Below are positions 8,807-22,757 of a stretch of 22,757 bases of DNA, in pieces. The position numbers and the translations under genes were made by a program. The stretch lies in the IMG/VR virus record IMGVR_UViG_3300031578_000362, positions 1 to 22,757 of that record; one strand, given 5' to 3'. Numbering within the stretch: the stretch's first letter is position 1; each line of letters opens with the position of its first letter. A model generated the notes under the pieces. It made no database searches and was not told where the DNA came from. It saw only the letters and a program-made list of their open reading frames with translations. Source of the DNA: a virus.

Positions 8807-11554
8807 CTACGAGCATCCGGTGGGAGTACCGCAGTTGATGCAGACGTAACAAGTCCCGCTGCGTTGTGTCATACCACCGCAGATAGGGCACATCTCCCCG
8901 TCATCCACGCGCCCAGCGTGCTCGGCAGGTACCTGCTCGGCCGCGCCGTCAGGCTTGATGTGCACCAAGTCAGTGCGGTCGAGATACTCAACGGCTAGCA
9001 TTCGAAACAAGTAGTCGATGATAGAACTGGCGTGCTTGATGTTGGGATGGCCTTTGACGTTTCCGTTGGGTGCGAAGTTCGTGAACGTGAACGCCTCGAC
9101 GAATTCCTCCAAAGGGACACCGTACTGCAGCGCGATGGACACCGCGATTGCGAAGCACCCGGTCATGCTCCGCATAGTGGCGCCTTCTTTGTGCATGTCG
9201 ATGAACACTTCACCGAGTCGACCATCCGGGTAGTTGCCGGTGCGCACGTAAATCTTCTGGCCCCCGACGACGGCCTTTTGTGTGAAGCCGGTGCGGCGAT
9301 TAGGGAGCGGCGCGCGCTCTCCGAGATTGATGGGCGCCTTGGCATCGCTAGAACCGGAGAGGACTTGACACACCTTGCTGCCGTCGCGGTAGATCGCGAC
9401 CGCCTTTAGTCCGAGTGCCCACGATTGTGCGTATAGATGCTCGATCTCATCAACCGATGTCTCGTGCGGCACATTGACGGTCTTGCTGATCGCACCGGAA
9501 AGGAACGGCTGCACCGCCACCATCATGCGAACGTGACCCATGGGCTTGATGTATCGCACACCGCTGCCGCACTTGTTTGCGCAGTCGAACACCGCGAGAT
9601 GTTCATCTCTAAGATGTGGTGCACCTTCTATCTGATCGTTCTCCTGCAAATAGAAAACGATCTCCTCGCTCTGCTGCGTCGAGTAGCCGAGATTGCCTAA
9701 CGCAGACATCACGGACTGGTTGACGATCCTGAACTGCCCGCCGCCTGCGAGCTTCTTGCGCTTGACCAACGCGAAGTCTGGCTCGACTCCAGTAGTGTCG
9801 CAATCCATGAGCAGGCCGATGGTACCAGTGGGTGCCAGTAGGCTCGCCTGTGCGTTGCGGTAGCCGAATCGCTCTCCCAGCGCCACCGCGTTGTCCCACG
9901 TACTGATCGCGGCTGCGCTGAGTGGTTGATCGGTGCCGATGTCTTGCTCAGCGTGCATACGGTGCTTGCGCATAACGGCAAGCATCGGCGTACGGTTGCG
10001 GGCGAACCCTTTGAACGGTCCCTTCGCCGCCGCCATGACTGCCGATTGCGCGTAGCTCTCACCAGTCATGATCGCGGTGATGGCACCCGCGAGAGCGCGG
10101 CCGGAGGACGAGTCGTATGGATGTCCCATGCGCATGAGCAGCGCGCCGAGGTTCGCGTAACCGATGCCCAGCGGCCTGTAGTCGTGGCTGGTCTCCGCAA
10201 TCTCTCGCGTCGGATAACTGGCGTAATCAATCAGGATTTCCTGCGCCGTGAAGATGACGCGCACGGCGTGCTTGAACTCGCGAACGTCAAACGTATTGTC
10301 TTCTCGCAGGAACTTGACGAGATTCAGACTCGCCAGGTTGCACGCTGACTCATCCAGAAAGACGAACTCGCTGCAGGGGTTTGAAGCGTTGATGCGCCCG
10401 GTGTTCGGGCACGTGTGCCAATCGTTCGTAGCCGTGTCGAACTGCATGCCGGGGTCAGCACACTGCCACGCGCTGTCGGCGATCTTGCGCATCGTGGCGC
10501 GGGCGCTCTTGGTCTCTGCTACCTCACCTGTGGTGCGGTAAATCGTATCGAACTTCCCGTCATCCTGCACAGCCTGCATGAATGCGTCGGTGACGCGCAC
10601 CGAGTTGTTTGCGTTCTGCCCGCTGATGGTGCGGTAGGCTTCTCCGTTGAAGTCGGCCGGGAATCCGGCCTCGATGAGAATGCGCGCCTTCGCCTCTTCG
10701 CGCGTCTTCCAAACAATAAACTCATCGATGTCTGGGTGATCGACGTCCACCACAACCATCTTCGCCGCGCGGCGCGTGGTGCCTCCGCTCTTGATGGCGC
10801 CAGCAGCCTTATCGAAGATGTCGAGGAAGCTCATCAAACCAGATGAGGCGCCCCCTCCTGCTAGTGCCTCCCCCTTGCCACGCAGCGCGGAGAAGTTCGC
10901 CCCAGCACCGGAGCCGTACTTGAATATCCGCATCTCACGCTTGACGTGCTCGGCGATGTCCATGAGATCGTCTTCGATCTTCTGAATGAAGCACGCCGAC
11001 ACCTGTGGGTTCGTGTAGCTGTCCTGCGCTAACTCGATGCAGTCAGTGGCTGGTGACCACCGCCAATTTCCGGCCGGGTTACCAGTGATCCCGTAGGCTT
11101 CAGCCAGCCCGCAGTTAAACCACACGGGCGAATTGAACGCCGCTCGCTGCGTGATTAGCAAGTACCGCAATTCGTCTTCGAACGCGGCGGCATCGGCTTC
11201 GCTCTGGAAGTACTCTTGACGTTCGCCAGCCTTGCGGATGGCGCTGGTGACGCGGCCGACCAACTGCCTCGCGCTCGTCTCAGTTCCAGTCGGGGAACCG
11301 ACCCCGGCCTTGCGGAAGTACTTGCTGGCAGCGATGTCTGTGGCAAGTTGACTCCAACTAGCGGGGACCTCGACGTCCTTCATCAAGAAGACGACGGCGC
11401 CGTCGCGCTCAGTGATGACAGCGTCTCGCTTCTCGTAGACAACGTGATCGAGTGGATCGCTGTAGCCCTCAGCGGTACGGTACTTCGCCGTGTGCACGCG
11501 CTCAAACATGAGCCCTTTGCTCGCGGCTACCGAATCCACCATGCGATCCACCAT
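8807..11554 (-). CDS. nrdJ: Class II (adenosylcobalamin-dependent) ribonucleoside-diphosphate reductase
   Basis: This 915-residue enzyme makes deoxyribonucleotides from ribonucleotides using a B12 cofactor to generate the thiyl radical, without oxygen or a small subunit. Visible features include NSPVWFNCG (141-149), the redox cysteine in VSACFI (C188), and the glycine-rich loop [16 protein letters not shown] (211-226). The active-site loop NPCSE has N392, the radical C394 and E396. C405 in [10 protein letters not shown] is the likely redox partner of C188. The C-terminus is Cys-rich (C889, C892, C902, C905, C908, C914), as in long NrdJ proteins, and probably binds zinc or shuttles electrons. 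The ATG at 11554 has AAGGA 6 nt upstream. The length matches bacterial long-form NrdJ, with no sign of an intein or frameshift. A GCAGGTACCTGC palindrome lies near its 3' end. Confidence 0.96.
8925..8936. repeat. Palindrome GCAGGTACCTGC, copy 2 (inside nrdJ)
   Basis: This is the same 12-base perfect palindrome as at 5375-5386 and 20460-20471. Over 16 positions it matches the intergenic copy at 14. In the reading frame it encodes EQVPAE. Confidence 0.6.
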
Positions 11555-15706: not shown

Positions 15707-15841
15707 TCAGCCCAGTAGGAGTGAGCGCTTGCAGAGGGGGCAAGCACCCTTGCGATGATACACCTTGCACGGCGCGCAGTAGACCGCGAACTTAGCATCC
15801 TTCGTCTTCGACGTCTGCGGTTCTGTAGTCGCTTCGCTCAT
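15707..15841 (-). CDS. 44-residue zinc-ribbon-like mini-protein between portal and head-morphogenesis genes
   Basis: This frame begins with ATG 15841 overlapping the portal TGA (ATGA) and ends with TGA 15707, two bases before the next ATG. It thus fills the gap between two firm genes exactly. The protein begins MSEATTEPQTSKTKDAKFAV, continues YCAPCKVYHRKGACPLCKRS and ends LLLG. The two CxxC pairs (C22/C25 and C34/C37) are spaced as in a compact zinc ribbon or knuckle. The linker is basic. It may be a nucleic-acid or protein-binding accessory to portal assembly. The family is not recognised. It could also be missed by gene finders because of its size. Confidence 0.7.
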   Translation of the reverse strand: MSEATTEPQTSKTKDAKFAVYCAPCKVYHRKGACPLCKRSLLLG

Positions 15842-17697
15842 TTCTTAAAAATCTTCCCACTCGACACGAGGTTTCGCATCACGGTAGCGCGTGTTGTTCG
15901 CGAGCGCTCACGAAGTCGAAAGGCGTCATCGTTGTTGATGGCCTCGATTCGCGTCTTCGGATCAGTCGTGTTCTGCAGCGCAGAACTGACCGCCGCTTTG
16001 CGCTTTTCGGCGCTGGAATTGGTCCACTCGTCAATCGAGAGATTGCGCGACGGCTTCAACCGCTCGCGCTCATCGCTACAGCTAGACTCCAACACCAGAC
16101 CGGAGGTAGCGTTGAGAGAGCGCTCGGACACAGCCGGTGGGATCACACGCTTGAATCCCTCCTCTGCGCGCTCAATCGCCTCACGGAGCGCCCCCCTATC
16201 TGGTGCCGAGCCGTTCTTCTTGCCGTTGCCCTCGAAAGCGAAGGCGCTGCTGCTTGCTGCGTGGTCCGCTTCCGCGCCTTCCGCGCCTTTGTAGAGTGCG
16301 TTCACGACATCGTCTGGGAAGCCGCCGTAGGTGCGCAGCACGAACGGGACATAGAAATCCTGATTGAACTGGTTGTCGTTCCCAAGACGCAGTGCGCGCT
16401 CAAGGCGGTCGAGCTTCATCTGTATGACCTCATGACGCTCCATCTCAAGAATGGGGGACACAGGGGCCATGTGAAGAGAGAAGCGATGCGCCTCTGCGGT
16501 CGGGTCAAGTCCTTGGTAAGCCATGTCGATCATGCAAAGGCGCACAAGCTCATAGAGGTAGCTGCGCTGCAGTCTGCTAGCACGCTTGGCGAACGGTTGA
16601 TGCTGGCGTGATAGAGACTGCTCTGGATTGTAGCGACCCTCACCGCGCATGAAGCCGTGTGGGAAGCCGACACCGTTCGCGAGGTTGTTGTACATCATGT
16701 CCAGGTCGCGGAGCAGATCGTTCTGATTCGTCGCCGGGAAGTTATTGAACTCGGTGCCGTTGTTCGGGCCACGCGGGAGCACGACGTCCATCGCATCGTC
16801 CAGCGGGACGCCCTGCGACTGAAATGTTCCGCCGTCAGGATTGAGGTGCCACTCGCGATGCATGCGACGCTTGAGATCGTCGATGAAGAAGTTCGCGTCG
16901 TCGAACGACATGCCAGCCGTGTCAACCAACGTGAGCACGCGGTCGGGTCTGCGCAACAAACGCTGCACGACAACCTGATCGAGCATCAACTGAAGCATGC
17001 GCCACGTGATTCGCGCACCCCACAGAAACGACGACTCGCAGCCGTAGATGTTAGTGAGATCACGCGAGGGCAAACGGAAATGCGCGACCTTGTAGTAGGG
17101 GACGGCGTGCGTCTCGTCTTTCGACGGGTTGCCCCTGTCGTCAGCCGGTGCGAAACCGAGCAGACGACCAATGTCGTCCTCCATGCGCGCGACTTGCCAC
17201 GGGTCGTACGCCTTGAGCGAGATGATCCCTTCGCCCTTCGCCGCTGCCACGTGTTGGAACACGTCGCCGTCACGGGCAAGCGTTCGCATCGTGGGAAACG
17301 CCTTCTGATCGGTCTGCGTGCGATCTAGGCAGCGTGTGACGATCCGCTGTACCTCCGTGCTGTTTGCCTCGCACCAAACGATGCGACCCCGCTCAGGATC
17401 GGTCTGCGCGCCGTCTTCACCGAACGCGTCGAGCACCGCCGAGATGATGGCGTCATAGTCCATCTCTCGATAGTTCTCATACAGTTCGATGCGGGACTCT
17501 TCTTGTGCGTAGAGACCCAGCGCCTTGTAGATCGCCTGCGCCTGACCAGCGCCGCGCAGCGGGTCAACATCTTCCGGTCGGCGCTGATGCTTGCTGACGC
17601 GGCGGTCAGGAAGTCGGTCTAGATTCTGAATCTTCCGCAGATTGCTCCACGGGTGCAGGATCATTTCCGAGAGAGATTGTTTACGGCGCTTTGCCAC
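15838..17697 (-). CDS. Portal protein, T4 gp20-like
   Basis: The 619-residue protein forms the dodecameric vertex through which TerL pumps DNA and to which the tail attaches. The N-terminal region has YREMDYDAIISAVLDAFGED (76-95), the 'Y..M....I..ALDI..DE' block of gp20-type portals, then GRIVWCEANSTEV (104-116). The core motif HFRLPSRD...YG.S (206-222) and RRPDRVLTLVDT (249-260) are typical of the family and lie in the stem and clip. The C-terminal ~130 residues are helical and less conserved. The start appears to be GTG 17697, 6 bases after the upstream stop, without a Shine-Dalgarno; translation may be coupled. The next gene overlaps by ATGA. Confidence 0.9.
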   Translation of the reverse strand: MAKRRKQSLSEMILHPWSNLRKIQNLDRLPDRRVSKHQRRPEDVDPLRGAGQAQAIYKALGLYAQEESRIELYENYREMDYDAIISAVLDAFGEDGAQTDPERGRIVWCEANSTEVQRIVTRCLDRTQTDQKAFPTMRTLARDGDVFQHVAAAKGEGIISLKAYDPWQVARMEDDIGRLLGFAPADDRGNPSKDETHAVPYYKVAHFRLPSRDLTNIYGCESSFLWGARITWRMLQLMLDQVVVQRLLRRPDRVLTLVDTAGMSFDDANFFIDDLKRRMHREWHLNPDGGTFQSQGVPLDDAMDVVLPRGPNNGTEFNNFPATNQNDLLRDLDMMYNNLANGVGFPHGFMRGEGRYNPEQSLSRQHQPFAKRASRLQRSYLYELVRLCMIDMAYQGLDPTAEAHRFSLHMAPVSPILEMERHEVIQMKLDRLERALRLGNDNQFNQDFYVPFVLRTYGGFPDDVVNALYKGAEGAEADHAASSSAFAFEGNGKKNGSAPDRGALREAIERAEEGFKRVIPPAVSERSLNATSGLVLESSCSDERERLKPSRNLSIDEWTNSSAEKRKAAVSSALQNTTDPKTRIEAINNDDAFRLRERSRTTRATVMRNLVSSGKIFKK

Positions 17698-17703
17698 GGC
17701 GTG

Positions 17704-18114
17704 CTACGAGCCGTAGATCGCGGTGATGCTGACGGTCGCGCGTTGTGTGCCGTTGTTGACGATGGAGAGGTCAGACACCGGTAGACCGTTGATCGTCCCT
17801 GGCAGCAACAGGATGCCAGCCTTCATGAAGTTGAACGGCCCAACCGGAACGCCGAGAGCGTTCAGTGTGATGTCAACTCCAGAGACGCTGCACGTGACGA
17901 GGAAGAGCGTCTGACCATCGGGCGACGCGACAGGTCCGCCAAGATTCGTAGGCAGTGAGATTGCCTTGGTCTCTCCCGCATCAACCTTCGCGGTGGCTTG
18001 TTGATGTCCGTTCTGCGCGGTGAGCGAGTACGTGAGTGGAATGGTGGTGAGGGATCCTTGCTCAGTGGAGCCGGACAGTGAGCCGGAAAGGCCCACGCAA
18101 ATCGGTGTAGTCAT
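17704..18114 (-). CDS. Small beta-rich protein between TerL and portal (136 aa)
   Basis: The start is ATG 18114, overlapping the TerL stop (TGATG), with AGGAG 7 nt upstream; a TTG one codon earlier is less likely. The protein is rich in Ser, Thr, Gly and Leu with alternating hydrophobic residues (SLTTIPLTYSLTAQNG, LFLVTCSVSGVDITLNALG, RATVSITAIYGS). This suggests a beta-sandwich. No signal peptide or catalytic motif is present. Position between terminase and portal suggests a small head or neck component; it is not a recognisable small terminase. The family is not recognised. Confidence 0.8.
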   Translation of the reverse strand: MTTPICVGLSGSLSGSTEQGSLTTIPLTYSLTAQNGHQQATAKVDAGETKAISLPTNLGGPVASPDGQTLFLVTCSVSGVDITLNALGVPVGPFNFMKAGILLLPGTINGLPVSDLSIVNNGTQRATVSITAIYGS

Positions 18115-20261
18115 CAACTGGCTCCTGGTAAGTACTTGCTCACTTGACCTTGAATCAGAAATCTATTGAAGCGTTCGTCAACCGCCATGCGACTGCTCTT
18201 CGTGTGTTCGGGATTCTCGCCTGGGGACACGTCATCAAGCAAGCAACTAAATGCAGCACCAATCAGTGCGTCCGATATATCCTTGGATCCCTGCGAGCCA
18301 TCTGGATTGCGCTTGCGATGATCTACCTTGTCGTTTTGGACATTGTGCTCTAGTCCGATCATCTCGTTGAACAGGATACACCGACGTAGAGCCTCTTCGG
18401 GGGATCCCCAGCGTTCCGGCGTGTAACCCCTGGGATAAGGGATCGCAAGCCGCCCTTCGTTCATCACTTGGCGCACGGTCTTGTGGGGTTTGCTCGTGCG
18501 ATCCACCGACAACGGCTCGGTCGTGAAACCGATCTCGCGCAGACGCTGCAGCATGTCGAGGGTGTTCCAACCGTCTGCCGTTATCTTTCGGATCCAGAAG
18601 CCGGTTCGCCGCAGCCAGTCGAGAAAGAGGCGCACCTTGCGGAAGTCGATGGGCTCGTTGCGCGGGCCAGCGGTCAAGCGCAGGTAGAAGTCGCACTCGA
18701 CATCTTTCATGACGAGGGACTCGCCGACCTGTGCGTCGTCGTACGGATTGAGCGCCGTGTGCTTGCGCTCTTCTAGGTGATGCCCGCTCGGATGCACCAT
18801 TGCGATGCCAAACCAGTCGCGACCTTCACCACCCTTCGCGGGGTCGAGGTGGATGTAGCGCGGTGACTCAGGATGCCGAATCGGTGCGCGACGACCCATG
18901 AACACGTTGGTCACGCGCTGAAACGCGAACGTGTCCGAAAGTCTAAACGTACCCTGACCCTCGTAGCATCGAACCGTCTGCCGGTCGAGCGGGTTTATCA
19001 ACTCCTCGTGGAATGCGGCCTCCACGATTTGACGCCGCGAGAAGAACGGCGTGAACGTGCTTGACGGACAGTCAGCCTGAAGACGAAGAGCACCGTAGAG
19101 ATCATCGACGAAGCGTGAGTAATGGTTCACGGGGACGTAGATGATTCGAGACTCATCGGGAGAGTCCGCCGGGTCGGCAGGCTCGACCATCCACGACTCA
19201 TCGGGGCGGCGGTTCACTGTGTCGAGCACGCGCGGGTCGCTGGTCTCGCTGCCGCGATACACGCGGAAGCCTGGGACTTTGCCGACCATGGTGTCGACCA
19301 AGTACGGTGCTGCGCGCTGAGATTCTACAGTCGTGAGGCGCTTGTATGGGTCTGATGTTCCGCGTTCCCATCGAGGACCACGGTCGACGAGGACACGATC
19401 CGAGTCACGCTTGTCGCGCGCGCGTTGCTCTAGAAAGTCGGCTTCGGTGCGTGTTTGAGAAATGAAGACGGCGATGCCTGGGATGTCGCCGTAGTCGGTC
19501 AGGAAACGCGACTCCAAACGGGCTGAGCACTCCTCAACCACGTCGTGCGCATCCTCCGACGACGACTGCCCTTGCTCGAAATAGTTCAGTTCGTCCGCCG
19601 CGACAGCGAAGAGGGACAGACCCAGTGCGTGAAAGCTCTTTGACGCGGGCTCCACGAGGATGCGTTTCTCGCCGCGATCCCACGTGATCTGCTCTTTCCC
19701 AAACGGCACGCGCGGGAACACGTCCTTGTAGTAGGGCATGTTGTCGATGAGTTGGTCCCGCAGAAGATAGAAGCCGGTATTGCGAAGCTGACGCTTCGTG
19801 ACCATGTAGAGACCAAAGACGATCTGCGTCCTCGGCGCGAGTCCGTAAAAGCGCGCCGGGTCACGCATGCACGTCAAGCGCGTGAGCTTGTAGAGCAGCA
19901 TGAGCATCGCAGCCGCAGTTTTGCCTCTACCCTGCGCTCCCGTGAGAATGCACTCAGTGATACCGCTGTTGATGCGACACGCACGCTCGATGACCGGGAC
20001 CCAACCAGGGAAGACCACAAACCCAGTTCCCCCGACGTAGTCAGCGTGGGTCAGAAAGGTGGCGATGTCAGGCGGCACGCGCTCATAGTCGATGGAGTAG
20101 AGAGCGCGCACAGCCTCATCGTCAGTGAGCAACTGCCCGGCGCGGTCGAGAAAGAACTGACGACCCGCAGGAGTCAGGCGCTGGAACATTTCCGTGCTGC
20201 CAGCCTGTACGTTTTCCATGACGCGTAGTAACTGCTCTTGGCGGCGAGAAACATCGCTCAT
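18114..20261 (-). CDS. Terminase large subunit (DNA-packaging ATPase/nuclease)
   Basis: The 715-residue protein has both terminase halves. In the ATPase half, Walker A is LTGAQGRGKT (106-115) and Walker B is LFAVAADELNYF (218-229, D223 E224). In the RNase H-like nuclease half, YIHLDPAKGGEGRDWFGIAM gives the first acid (D473), ITADGWNTLDML a second (D563), and SKDISDALIGAAF the third (D661 or D664). It binds the portal, cuts concatemeric DNA and pumps it into the prohead. ATG 20261 has no Shine-Dalgarno; a promoter 21 nt upstream implies a ~14-nt leader. No small terminase gene is visible upstream. Confidence 0.95.
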   Translation of the reverse strand: MSDVSRRQEQLLRVMENVQAGSTEMFQRLTPAGRQFFLDRAGQLLTDDEAVRALYSIDYERVPPDIATFLTHADYVGGTGFVVFPGWVPVIERACRINSGITECILTGAQGRGKTAAAMLMLLYKLTRLTCMRDPARFYGLAPRTQIVFGLYMVTKRQLRNTGFYLLRDQLIDNMPYYKDVFPRVPFGKEQITWDRGEKRILVEPASKSFHALGLSLFAVAADELNYFEQGQSSSEDAHDVVEECSARLESRFLTDYGDIPGIAVFISQTRTEADFLEQRARDKRDSDRVLVDRGPRWERGTSDPYKRLTTVESQRAAPYLVDTMVGKVPGFRVYRGSETSDPRVLDTVNRRPDESWMVEPADPADSPDESRIIYVPVNHYSRFVDDLYGALRLQADCPSSTFTPFFSRRQIVEAAFHEELINPLDRQTVRCYEGQGTFRLSDTFAFQRVTNVFMGRRAPIRHPESPRYIHLDPAKGGEGRDWFGIAMVHPSGHHLEERKHTALNPYDDAQVGESLVMKDVECDFYLRLTAGPRNEPIDFRKVRLFLDWLRRTGFWIRKITADGWNTLDMLQRLREIGFTTEPLSVDRTSKPHKTVRQVMNEGRLAIPYPRGYTPERWGSPEEALRRCILFNEMIGLEHNVQNDKVDHRKRNPDGSQGSKDISDALIGAAFSCLLDDVSPGENPEHTKSSRMAVDERFNRFLIQGQVSKYLPGAS
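18122..18126 (-). promoter_or_regulatory. Shine-Dalgarno AGGAG fixing the start at 18114
   Basis: AGGAG lies 7 nt from ATG 18114-18112, inside the 3' end of the terminase gene. It favours ATG over the adjacent TTG. Confidence 0.65.
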
Positions 20262-20644: not shown

Positions 20645-22757
20645 TCACGTCTCTTTGAGTCGCGCCTTCGGCTTGACCAGGGACACCTTGACGGCACCGC
20701 TGCGCTGGGCTCGTTCTTCGGTCGTCACATCATAGTTGATCGCGCCGATGGAATTGATCTTCGGGTACTTCTTCTTCATCGCGTCGAGCAGATGCCCGAC
20801 CGCTGGGTGCATCATCCTGCCCCAGTGGATCATTTTCGCCTTTGGGTGGAGTCGGTAGAACTCCTCGATGATCTTGCGGATGTAGCCTTTGCCGCGCGAA
20901 TCGCTGCGAGACTTCATGTAGTTGAGGTAGTAGATGGCGCGCCCTGTGTCGGTCCAATCGGTCCAATCTAGGAACGCCACGATGCAGTTGTCTTTGACGC
21001 CGGGAATGATTTCGTCCAGCACTGGTTTCTTGAGACGCCTGCCCGTTTTCGTTCGGTGACGCCATCGCTCGATCTCCGCGAAGTAGACATCGCCTTTGTT
21101 TGGCGGATCCGTGACGCTGGTGTCGCAGAGCACAAGGCGATGCACGAGGCCACCACGGTGGTAGGTCAGCGGCGACTTGCCAGCGTCGCGAAACTCGATT
21201 GACTCATCGACCACCGACTCATCTTCAGCTTCGGTCTGAACGGTGAGCACTTTCCCTACCGTCTTGAAGTTGCGCTTACGCATGACTGTCTTGGAGATCA
21301 ACTCCATCATTCGCGTGTCGCGGTTGTACTCCAACACAAACGGAATGTTGATTTGGCTCGTCAGGTCTTTGATGACCGCTTCCCAGTTCGCGCCGTGTCC
21401 GACGATCTTCTTCGCGTAGCGCGTGTAGACCCTCTGGAAGATGTGAGCCAGTTCTTCGGTGGTGATCGGCTCACCGTTGCGGCTGTCATTGACTCGGTCG
21501 AAGAAGTGCCGAGTGAACTCAATGTCGAGCCCGGCCTGTTTGAACATCGCGTCTAGGAAACGCTCCAACTGTTGAAGCTCGTTGCGAGACACGTTCTCGT
21601 TGACTTTCAGGTTCAGGTTCTCCCGCCCCACAATCCGCGCGCTACTAGCGTGGAACACCGGACCAAAAGGTGGGCCATGACTCGACAACCGTTTCACAGA
21701 CCCATTCGGCTCGACGCGAAAGACGACCGGCGCACCACCCCACTTGTTGACTGCGCGCCGCGCGTAGGTCATCGCTGACACCACGTTAGATGTGAAGAAC
21801 ACGCGGTGCCTACGCTGAGTACGAATCTCTGTTTGCTTGCCTGTCTCACTAGCGGGCTGCAGCGACGTCATCCCGAGAGCAGTCGACGTCCCGTGGTAGT
21901 AGGTTAGTGCCGCTTCGTTCAGGTCGCGGCGCTTGAGCTTCTTCACCCAACGCGGCACACGGTCGACAGGACTGAGTCCGAGAATCTCTTTCGCCTCCGG
22001 CGAGGAGTACCAATCGGACTGCCCGCGCTTCTCCCATGATGGGAGATCGCGCCAGGTGTCCCAAGCCGCGCCAAGCTCCGCACGTGTGTCGACACCGAGT
22101 TGGCGGAAGCCTGGCGATGCGGTCGCGGCGGCTTCCGTGATCTGGTTTATGTAGCGGGCGCAGGAAGCGCCAAGCATGACGCTGCCGTCGTTCAGCTTTA
22201 CCTCGATGCGCTTCGACTTGAGCGCCTTACCGCACGCGGCGCAGCAGTCTTCTGTGGAGAACGCCGTGGTTGACTTACGCATCTTCACGAAGTGCGGCGC
22301 ACCGGCCAGTGCGTTGAGCAGTTCATCGTTGAACTCTTCGGTGCTCATGTTGAATGAGCGCACGTTCGTAGACTCGCTACGAGTGTCAACGCCGAGTTGC
22401 TTGAAGCCGGGCGATGCGGTCGCTGGGATCTTGACCTCATCCAAAACAGACTCGGCCTTGTTGATGACGGCTTCTAGCAGCTTGCCGTGCTTGTTGATGA
22501 ACAGGTGCTTGGCGTCTGCCGTCTCCCGCTTAGTAACGACACCACCAGACTCCAGCGCCATAAGCAAGACAGCATGAAACGTGATCCCATTCGCATACCA
22601 GATGTCGCCGTTCTGGAGTTGTATCGCTACCACTGTGCCGTCTGGGCGGTCACCCTTCGTCCATCTCTTTAGCTCGTAGCCACTCACCGTGGTGCTCTCG
22701 GCGCGCACGCCTTCTGTCTTGTCGCTCTTCGCTCGGTTGGTCTTGAACGACACGGCG
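20645..22757 (-). CDS. Multidomain protein: Cys cluster, ADP-ribosyltransferase-like, phage module, GNAT-like (5' end uncertain)
   Basis: A GTG at 22753 could start a 702-residue protein, but the frame is open to the window edge, so the N-terminus may lie outside. Residue numbers count from that GTG. Residues 111-125 and 210-224 are a repeated linker (ATASPGF[K/R]QLGVDTR). Between them is a Cys cluster (CCAACGKAL 170-178, GASCARY 195-201). Residues ~283-352 resemble Arr-type ADP-ribosyltransferases (YYHGTS, VFFTS, MTYARRAV, VFRVEPNG; H287 and Y330 are candidate catalytic residues). Residues ~411-497 (FTRHFFDRVNDSRNG ... INIPFVLEY ... KTVMRKRNFKT) are a module I associate with phage structural polyproteins. 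Residues ~580-675 are GNAT-like, with the acetyl-CoA loop SRGKGYIRKII. It may modify host proteins, possibly after injection; this is inference. Confidence 0.8.
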   Translation of the reverse strand, partial: AVSFKTNRAKSDKTEGVRAESTTVSGYELKRWTKGDRPDGTVVAIQLQNGDIWYANGITFHAVLLMALESGGVVTKRETADAKHLFINKHGKLLEAVINKAESVLDEVKIPATASPGFKQLGVDTRSESTNVRSFNMSTEEFNDELLNALAGAPHFVKMRKSTTAFSTEDCCAACGKALKSKRIEVKLNDGSVMLGASCARYINQITEAAATASPGFRQLGVDTRAELGAAWDTWRDLPSWEKRGQSDWYSSPEAKEILGLSPVDRVPRWVKKLKRRDLNEAALTYYHGTSTALGMTSLQPASETGKQTEIRTQRRHRVFFTSNVVSAMTYARRAVNKWGGAPVVFRVEPNGSVKRLSSHGPPFGPVFHASSARIVGRENLNLKVNENVSRNELQQLERFLDAMFKQAGLDIEFTRHFFDRVNDSRNGEPITTEELAHIFQRVYTRYAKKIVGHGANWEAVIKDLTSQINIPFVLEYNRDTRMMELISKTVMRKRNFKTVGKVLTVQTEAEDESVVDESIEFRDAGKSPLTYHRGGLVHRLVLCDTSVTDPPNKGDVYFAEIERWRHRTKTGRRLKKPVLDEIIPGVKDNCIVAFLDWTDWTDTGRAIYYLNYMKSRSDSRGKGYIRKIIEEFYRLHPKAKMIHWGRMMHPAVGHLLDAMKKKYPKINSIGAINYDVTTEERAQRSGAVKVSLVKPKARLKET
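22086..22126. repeat. Direct repeat copy B within the multidomain gene
   Basis: This 41-base stretch matches 22383-22423 at 35 of 41 positions and encodes TASPGFRQLGVDTR. It lies after the Cys cluster. Confidence 0.75.
22383..22423. repeat. Direct repeat copy A within the multidomain gene
   Basis: This is the partner of 22086-22126 and encodes TASPGFKQLGVDTR. It lies before the Cys cluster, so the two copies flank that segment. Confidence 0.75.

What the first reader, a model, noticed from the sequence alone, without database searches (positions are those of the whole stretch)
20645..22757. Phage fusion protein with ADP-ribosyltransferase-like and GNAT-like segments
Seen: one open frame carries YYHGTS...VFFTS...VFRVEPNG (Arr/ART-like order and spacing), a phage-type central module, and a C-terminal SRGKGYIRKII acetyl-CoA-loop-like motif, plus an N-terminal Cys cluster. 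Known: T4 packages ADP-ribosyltransferases such as Alt to modify host RNA polymerase, and polyvalent phage proteins fuse unrelated effectors. Inference: this could be a virion-carried, two-activity effector that takes over host proteins, or a defence-countering protein. I do not know a described protein with this exact combination.
Basis: partly seen in the sequence, partly recalled or inferred. Interest (0 to 1): 0.75.

Follow-up and report, generated by a model that had tools for sequence, protein, structure and literature searches.

The report
Cleavable phage multi-effector protein
This is the tail end of a giant phage protein that strings together at least six enzyme-like modules, and the same short cutting signal that T4-type phages use when maturing their heads sits in front of each module, which suggests that it is loaded into the virus head, cut into separate effectors and delivered into the host cell.

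Summary
The reading frame is real and identical in two other contigs. It is only the C-terminal half of a protein of at least 1,529 aa, still open at its 5' end. Residues 284-378 have an Arr-like ADP-ribosyltransferase fold (RB69ORF040c/Dmd-linked phage family), but two of three expected catalytic positions are altered. The C-terminus is a GNAT-type module. The central module resembles T4 RegB endoribonuclease. Upstream lie an HNH module and probable ParB-like and further ART-like segments, so this is a phage 'polyvalent protein'; ART+GNAT fusions of that kind are already published. The new part is at the joints. All six recognisable modules are preceded within five residues by hydrophobic-x-Glu, the T4 prohead-protease motif (chance about 1e-6). 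Across unrelated fused phage proteins the motif stands directly before the HNH module (8/8) and the RegB-like module (E in 18/22), while stand-alone HNH proteins lack it. The GNAT relatives carry capsid-targeting-like leaders ending in the same motif. The window has a T4-type portal. Best reading: a head-packaged effector polyprotein cut in trans by a gp21-type protease. No protease gene lies in this fragment, so cleavage is inferred.

The parts
20645..22756 (-). C-terminal 703 codons of a phage polyvalent protein of at least 1,529 aa (5' end outside the record)
   Evidence: extension in L002
22718..22756 (-). C-terminal edge of the HNH-type module (most of it lies upstream in L002: residues 767-826 of P0002)
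   Evidence: phrog_4590 6.6e-10; a homologous module scores Pfam HNH_3 1.5e-6
22379..22423 (-). repeated linker, copy 1 (ATASPGFKQLGVDTR; starts a few residues after VLDE)
22148..22255 (-). Cys cluster CCxxC...C, possible small Zn-binding segment
   Evidence: sequence; fold not tested
22082..22126 (-). repeated linker, copy 2 (ATASPGFRQLGVDTR; shortly after QITE)
21914..21931 (-). joint RRDLNE|AAL before the ART module (candidate prohead-protease site)
21623..21907 (-). Arr-like ADP-ribosyltransferase module (H288; F320 at the Arr Y49 position; S353 where most relatives have D/E)
21596..21610 (-). joint LKVNE|NVS before the central module
21236..21595 (-). central module, RegB-like fold (predicted endoribonuclease; invariant H416 aligns with RegB H48)
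21203..21214 (-). joint VVDE|SIEF before the GNAT-type module; aligns with the leader|module boundary of stand-alone relatives
20717..21202 (-). GNAT-type acetyltransferase module
18114..20261 (-). terminase large subunit (next gene; context)
15838..17697 (-). T4 gp20-type portal protein (context; implies a T4-type head)
   Evidence: Portal_T4 3.2e-22

Best explanation
The frame is the C-terminal part of a giant phage polyvalent protein encoded next to the terminase and portal genes, and most likely taken into the forming head. Its modules include an HNH module, an Arr-like ART, a RegB-like RNase and a GNAT, with further ART-like and ParB-like segments upstream. They are separated by hydrophobic-x-Glu sites of the kind that T4-type (gp21) prohead proteases cut. 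During head maturation the chain is cut at these joints, and the separate small effectors are ejected into the host with the DNA. There the ART and GNAT would modify host macromolecules and the RegB-like module would cut mRNA. Shown by computation: the domain folds, the head-gene context, and the conservation of the motif at module joints across unrelated fused phage proteins. Inferred: packaging, cleavage, enzyme activities and targets.
For: Domains: ART, RegB-like, GNAT, HNH. Joints: six of six recognisable modules have hydrophobic-x-Glu within 5 residues upstream (IHE, LDE, VTE, LNE, VNE, VDE; about 9e-7 by chance; the same test with ten other P1 residues gives 0-2 of 6). For the central module fused inside larger phage proteins, E stands at the joint in 18/22 and a hydrophobic residue two before it in 17/22, against backgrounds of 9% and 22%. 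For the HNH module 8/8 fused copies have it while the preceding 12 aa are unrelated (13% mean identity), and stand-alone HNH proteins start M-A-R-N-Y or similar without the E. The C-terminal module occurs elsewhere behind leaders such as MILLKKYIREVLAE|GIEFRE, and the E aligns with VVDE|SIEFRD. Central-module relatives start MKTFKQFSE|DIS, MRSFKEYILE|DVS, similar in form to the 10-residue IPIII propeptide that targets T4 internal proteins (PMC9026906). T4 Alt is cut at ITE-6 and LTE-619 (PMC5694885). Seven of 25 records, most of them carrying these modules, have a gp21-type protease, and gp23 propeptides in such phages bear the same hydrophobic-x-Glu sites. The window's portal is T4-type; the Immutovirus immuto, one of its closest named portal relatives, has a central-module gene upstream of terminase-portal-protease-gp23.
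Against: No gp21-type protease was found in the window and no capsid gene was recognised there; none stands close after the portal as it does in Immutovirus and Mel-JY01. Three of the six joint motifs have V at P3; the two T4 Alt sites quoted have I and L. The central and C-terminal modules in the window have lost the amphipathic leader and keep only the x-E end. The terminase is siphovirus-like, so the head is a mosaic. The anchor points for the 6/6 test were chosen after seeing the sequence. The true N-terminus, where a capsid-targeting sequence should be, is not in any contig found. ART catalysis is doubtful (F320, S353).
Confidence: 0.55

Rival explanations
1. An ordinary polyvalent protein that is packaged or expressed as one uncut chain; the x-E motifs are neutral linker residues or part of the module folds.
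For: Iyer 2017 notes N4 vRNAP and plasmid polyvalent proteins that travel unprocessed (PMC5512222). No protease is seen in the window.
Against: The motif is placed exactly at joints across unrelated fusions and is absent from stand-alone HNH copies.
Confidence: 0.25
2. The protein is an intracellular factor (toxin-antitoxin or superinfection-exclusion type) never packaged; the ART derives from the Dmd-linked toxin family.
For: RB69ORF040c sits directly upstream of dmd, matching the predicted ART-Dmd pair of Iyer 2022 (PMC9503650). In RB69 the ART gene is not in a head operon.
Against: Head-gene neighbours, leader-tagged relatives of the C-terminal and central modules, no dmd-like partner recognised next to it.
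Confidence: 0.1
3. The ART module is catalytically dead and serves as a binding or scaffold domain; only some modules act as enzymes. (This can be true together with the best explanation.)
For: F at the Arr Y49 position and Ser in place of the D/E of most relatives.
Against: H288 and the rest of the fold signature are kept; most of the phage family has the Y-to-F change and is conserved. How the catalytic acid maps onto Arr is not certain from the alignment.
Confidence: 0.35
4. One reading: one virion-carried effector with two activities that takes over host RNA polymerase as T4 Alt does.
For: ART and GNAT folds are real; phages use both against RNA polymerase (Alt; Rac, PMC7824862).
Against: At least six modules; the ART belongs to a different clade from Alt; no evidence on targets.
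Confidence: 0.08

Closest known systems
Phage polyvalent proteins (Iyer et al. 2017, PMC5512222)
   Same: Many conflict-type enzyme domains in one chain, next to terminase/portal genes; ART and GNAT together; ParB-like domains; weak Pfam hits to ART-PolyVal and LPD7
   Different: Processing there is ascribed to an embedded metallopeptidase; here no such domain was seen in the 1,529 aa and the joints look like sites for a T4-type prohead protease acting in trans; the module set (Arr-type ART, RegB-like, HNH) differs
T4 internal head proteins IPI-III and Alt with capsid-targeting sequence and gp21 site
   Same: Hydrophobic-x-Glu processing motif; the relatives' leaders resemble the IPIII propeptide; head-gene context
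   Different: T4 proteins carry one cargo each; here many cargos in one chain, and the leader is not visible before each module
RB69ORF040c / Dmd-linked phage ART (probably the 'p0068 ART + Dmd' pair of Iyer 2022)
   Same: Same domain family, about 35% identity
   Different: Stand-alone 105 aa gene beside dmd versus an internal module; Ser at the family's acidic position
Rifampin ADP-ribosyltransferase Arr (2HW2, 9IAF)
   Same: Fold, H19 equivalent, the only PDB sequence relatives
   Different: Y49 is F, catalytic-loop acid not evident, substrate unknown
T4 RegB endoribonuclease
   Same: Fold match in BFVD and alignment of the invariant His with RegB H48
   Different: Very distant (E about 0.002 in a pairwise profile test); RegB H68 has no equivalent, though it also varies among RegB homologues

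Membership tests
Phage polyvalent protein | two or more unrelated effector-type domains in one polypeptide | tested here: met
   ART, RegB-like, GNAT, HNH
Phage polyvalent protein | encoded with terminase/portal packaging genes | tested here: met
   TerL and T4-type portal downstream
Phage polyvalent protein | curated LPD/ART-PolyVal domain above cut-off | tested here: inconclusive
   LPD7 0.0077 and ART-PolyVal 0.024, both below cut-off
Arr-like ADP-ribosyltransferase | ART fold | tested here: met
   Foldseek 2.5e-4, probability 1.00 to Arr, model pLDDT 76
Arr-like ADP-ribosyltransferase | H-Y-[D/E/Q] active-site triad | tested here: not met
   H288 kept, Y to F320, acidic position S353
T4 Alt (R-S-E ART) | R-S-E active site, Alt sequence | tested here: not met
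   No hit to Alt families; Arr/H-Y type order
GNAT acetyltransferase | GNAT fold with acetyl-CoA loop | tested here: met
   Four relatives hit Acetyltransf_CG (best 3.8e-6); the listed PDB fold hits are nearly all GNATs, probability up to 1.00, E from 2.6e-3; the window copy alone has no GNAT Pfam hit
RegB/RelE-type endoribonuclease | RegB fold and catalytic His48 | tested here: inconclusive
   BFVD RegB match TM(target) 0.64; hhalign 0.0019, score 25.1 vs 19.0 best of 100 decoys; H416 aligns with H48
Prohead-protease substrate | hydrophobic-x-Glu at processed joints | tested here: met
   6/6 joints; conserved in unrelated fusions; that they are processed is not shown
Prohead-protease substrate | gp21-type protease in the same phage | not testable with these tools
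   Window is a fragment without it; present in longer records with related modules and in Immutovirus
Prohead-protease substrate | N-terminal capsid-targeting sequence | not testable with these tools
   N-terminus lies beyond every contig found

The most novel reading that the evidence does not exclude
Phages with T4-type heads encode cleavable effector polyproteins: chains of unrelated injected enzymes, each module fronted by a prohead-protease site, that are packaged as one protein and matured inside the head into a set of separate effectors. The same modules shuffle between this form and single leader-tagged genes.
Probability: 0.5. Interest if true: 0.78.

Novelty: new variant of a known kind. 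Interest (0 to 1): 0.6.

Why it matters
If the joints are cut, a short motif would let one predict, from sequence alone, which phage proteins are injected and where each effector begins and ends, for many phage genes now called hypothetical. It would also give a plain rule for how phages gather and swap early-infection weapons: any domain placed behind a leader or an x-E joint can ride in the head. It ties polyvalent proteins, whose release was ascribed to embedded peptidases, to the well-studied T4 maturation protease.

Tried and rejected
Alt-type ART: rejected (no Alt family hit, Arr-type order). Embedded metallopeptidase for self-cleavage: none seen in Pfam scans. NCBIfam naming of the whole protein: nothing. 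Search for the true N-terminus with P0002 and an exact 30-mer: only L002's own contig. C-terminal module in named phages and in 85,000 genomes: no relatives, so it looks restricted to uncultured phages. Joint alignment of ART and central-module relatives (A4) misaligned and was not used. A first local hhalign calibration was run with a wrong option and was repeated correctly. Sequence search of upstream ART-like segment 1 against PDB: nothing significant. The ParB-like segment and the two upstream ART-like segments are read by eye, with only weak profile support for the first ART.

Full report
What is there. The window is a complete IMG/VR record of 22,757 bases. The finding's frame covers 20645-22756 on the minus strand, 703 codons with no stop. 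Two other contigs encode the same protein at 100% identity. One of them, L002, continues the frame for another 826 codons and still has no start, so the protein has at least 1,529 residues. All residue numbers below are for P0001, where residue 1 is the codon at 22756-22754.

ART module (residues 284-378). It hits phrog_2110 at 2.7e-11 and small phage proteins including RB69ORF040c, which lies directly upstream of dmd, and an Acinetobacter phage protein annotated 'putative ADP-ribosyl transferase'. Single members of the family hit Pfam Arr-ms (best 8.2e-5) and the family profile finds only Arr in the PDB. The AlphaFold model (pLDDT 76) matches Arr with probability 1.00, E 2.5e-4. H288 is the Arr H19 equivalent. 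Arr Y49 falls on F320, and most relatives also have F there; where most relatives have D or E after the YRV strand, this copy has S353. So the fold is ART, but activity cannot be taken for granted. Iyer et al. 2022 describe a p0068-family ART paired with Dmd in enterophages (PMC9503650); equating that family with this one is my inference from the gene order.

Central module (388-507). In the viral fold library its matches include a RegB-type site-specific endoribonuclease (TM on target 0.64, E 3.7e-6). A profile comparison with a RegB family gives E 0.0019, score 25.1 against at most 19.0 for 100 shuffled decoys, and aligns the invariant H416 with RegB catalytic H48 (H48 and H68 as catalytic residues from PMC3014915). 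This is suggestive, not proven.

C-terminal module (519-680). No relatives were found in named phages or in the genome collection, but 44-65% identical relatives occur in five uncultured phage contigs. Four of them hit GNAT families (best 3.8e-6), and the PDB fold hits are almost all GNATs.

Upstream. P0002 holds an HNH module (phrog_4590; a homologue hits HNH_3). By eye it also shows a ParB-like segment and two ART-like segments, of which only the first has weak profile support (ART-PolyVal 0.024; LPD7 0.0077 elsewhere). The next gene downstream is a terminase large subunit, followed after one small gene by a T4 gp20-type portal (Portal_T4 3.2e-22). This is the setting and make-up of the polyvalent proteins of Iyer et al. 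2017, who also noted that one family of phage GNATs there typically neighbours an ART (PMC5512222).

The joints. Stand-alone relatives of the C-terminal and central modules begin with short leaders: MILLKKYIREVLAE|GIEFRE, MKTFKQFSE|DISKSDL, MRSFKEYILE|DVSKSDL. T4 internal proteins are taken into the head by a 10-residue propeptide in which residues 8 and 10 matter for processing (PMC9026906), and T4 Alt is cut at ITE-6 and LTE-619 (PMC5694885). In the window protein the residue aligned with the leader's last Glu is still Glu (VVDE|SIEF, KVNE|NVSR). All six recognisable modules have hydrophobic-x-Glu one to five residues upstream of their first motif; the chance value is about 9e-7, and the same test with ten other residues in the last position gives 0 to 2 of 6. 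Since I chose the anchor points, I looked for independent support. Among 22 non-redundant copies of the central module inside longer proteins, Glu stands at the joint in 18 and a hydrophobic residue two before it in 17, against backgrounds of 9% and 22%. Among 8 fused copies of the HNH module the motif is present in 8, although the 12 residues before it are unrelated (13% mean identity), while stand-alone copies start M-A-R-N-Y or similar without it. The Glu is therefore not needed by the HNH module; it belongs to the fusion.

Protease. Seven of the 25 records searched have a gp21-type protease, mostly the longest, and gp23 propeptides in such phages carry the same hydrophobic-x-Glu sites. In Immutovirus a central-module gene lies just upstream of terminase, gp20-type portal, prohead protease and gp23. 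In the window itself no protease is seen, and the genes after the portal are something else, so for this phage the protease is assumed.

Leader cassettes. L010, L011 and L127 show runs of neighbouring genes with an M-x-LLREYIRxLLxE leader in front of very different domains, and some of these genes have a second leader in mid-protein (L010 5263-6441, NLRRFVRGVLHE|GVEFRE). This looks like the same cargo set in single-gene form.

Conclusion. Domain identity is good for ART and GNAT, moderate for RegB-like, good for HNH. Packaging and cutting are inferred but rest on a pattern that held up in independent module families. I found no paper in the library that describes T4-type prohead-protease sites between polyvalent-protein modules, but most subscription journals are not held. 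I rate it a new variant of a known kind.

Noticed in passing
L010 4600-12000; L011 4500-10000; L127 350-8500: Runs of consecutive genes that share an N-terminal leader of the form M-x-LLREYIRxLLxE in front of unrelated domains (by eye 2H phosphoesterase-like, DnaQ-like exonuclease, HD-like, GNAT, nucleotidyltransferase); possible cassettes of head-packaged effectors.
   Followed up: partly
L010 5263-6441; L011 5590-6444: Genes with a second leader-like sequence in mid-protein just before the GNAT-type module.
   Followed up: partly
window 22379-22423 and 22082-22126: A linker (ATASPGF[KR]QLGVDTR[SA]E) occurs twice, flanking the Cys cluster; each copy follows closely on a hydrophobic-x-Glu site.
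   Followed up: no
L018, 853-aa frame: Another phage protein with a ParB-like segment, the same ART family and, by eye, two further ART-like segments; it starts with a leader-like MNKLSTTSIQKLINE.
   Followed up: no
L019, 193-aa frame: The leader-like INKFAQQ stands both before the ART and again before a second segment; a different leader type, perhaps matching a protease with another specificity.
   Followed up: no
L187, L200, L202, L219, L234: Phage proteins of about 1,000 aa or more (by eye in the three printed: nucleotidyltransferase-like start, basic helical part) ending in the HNH module, with many hydrophobic-x-Glu sites.
   Followed up: partly
window 15838-20261: Mosaic head genes: siphovirus-like terminase beside a T4-type portal.
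   Followed up: partly
window 8807-11554: Class II (B12-dependent) ribonucleotide reductase in the phage fragment.
   Followed up: no
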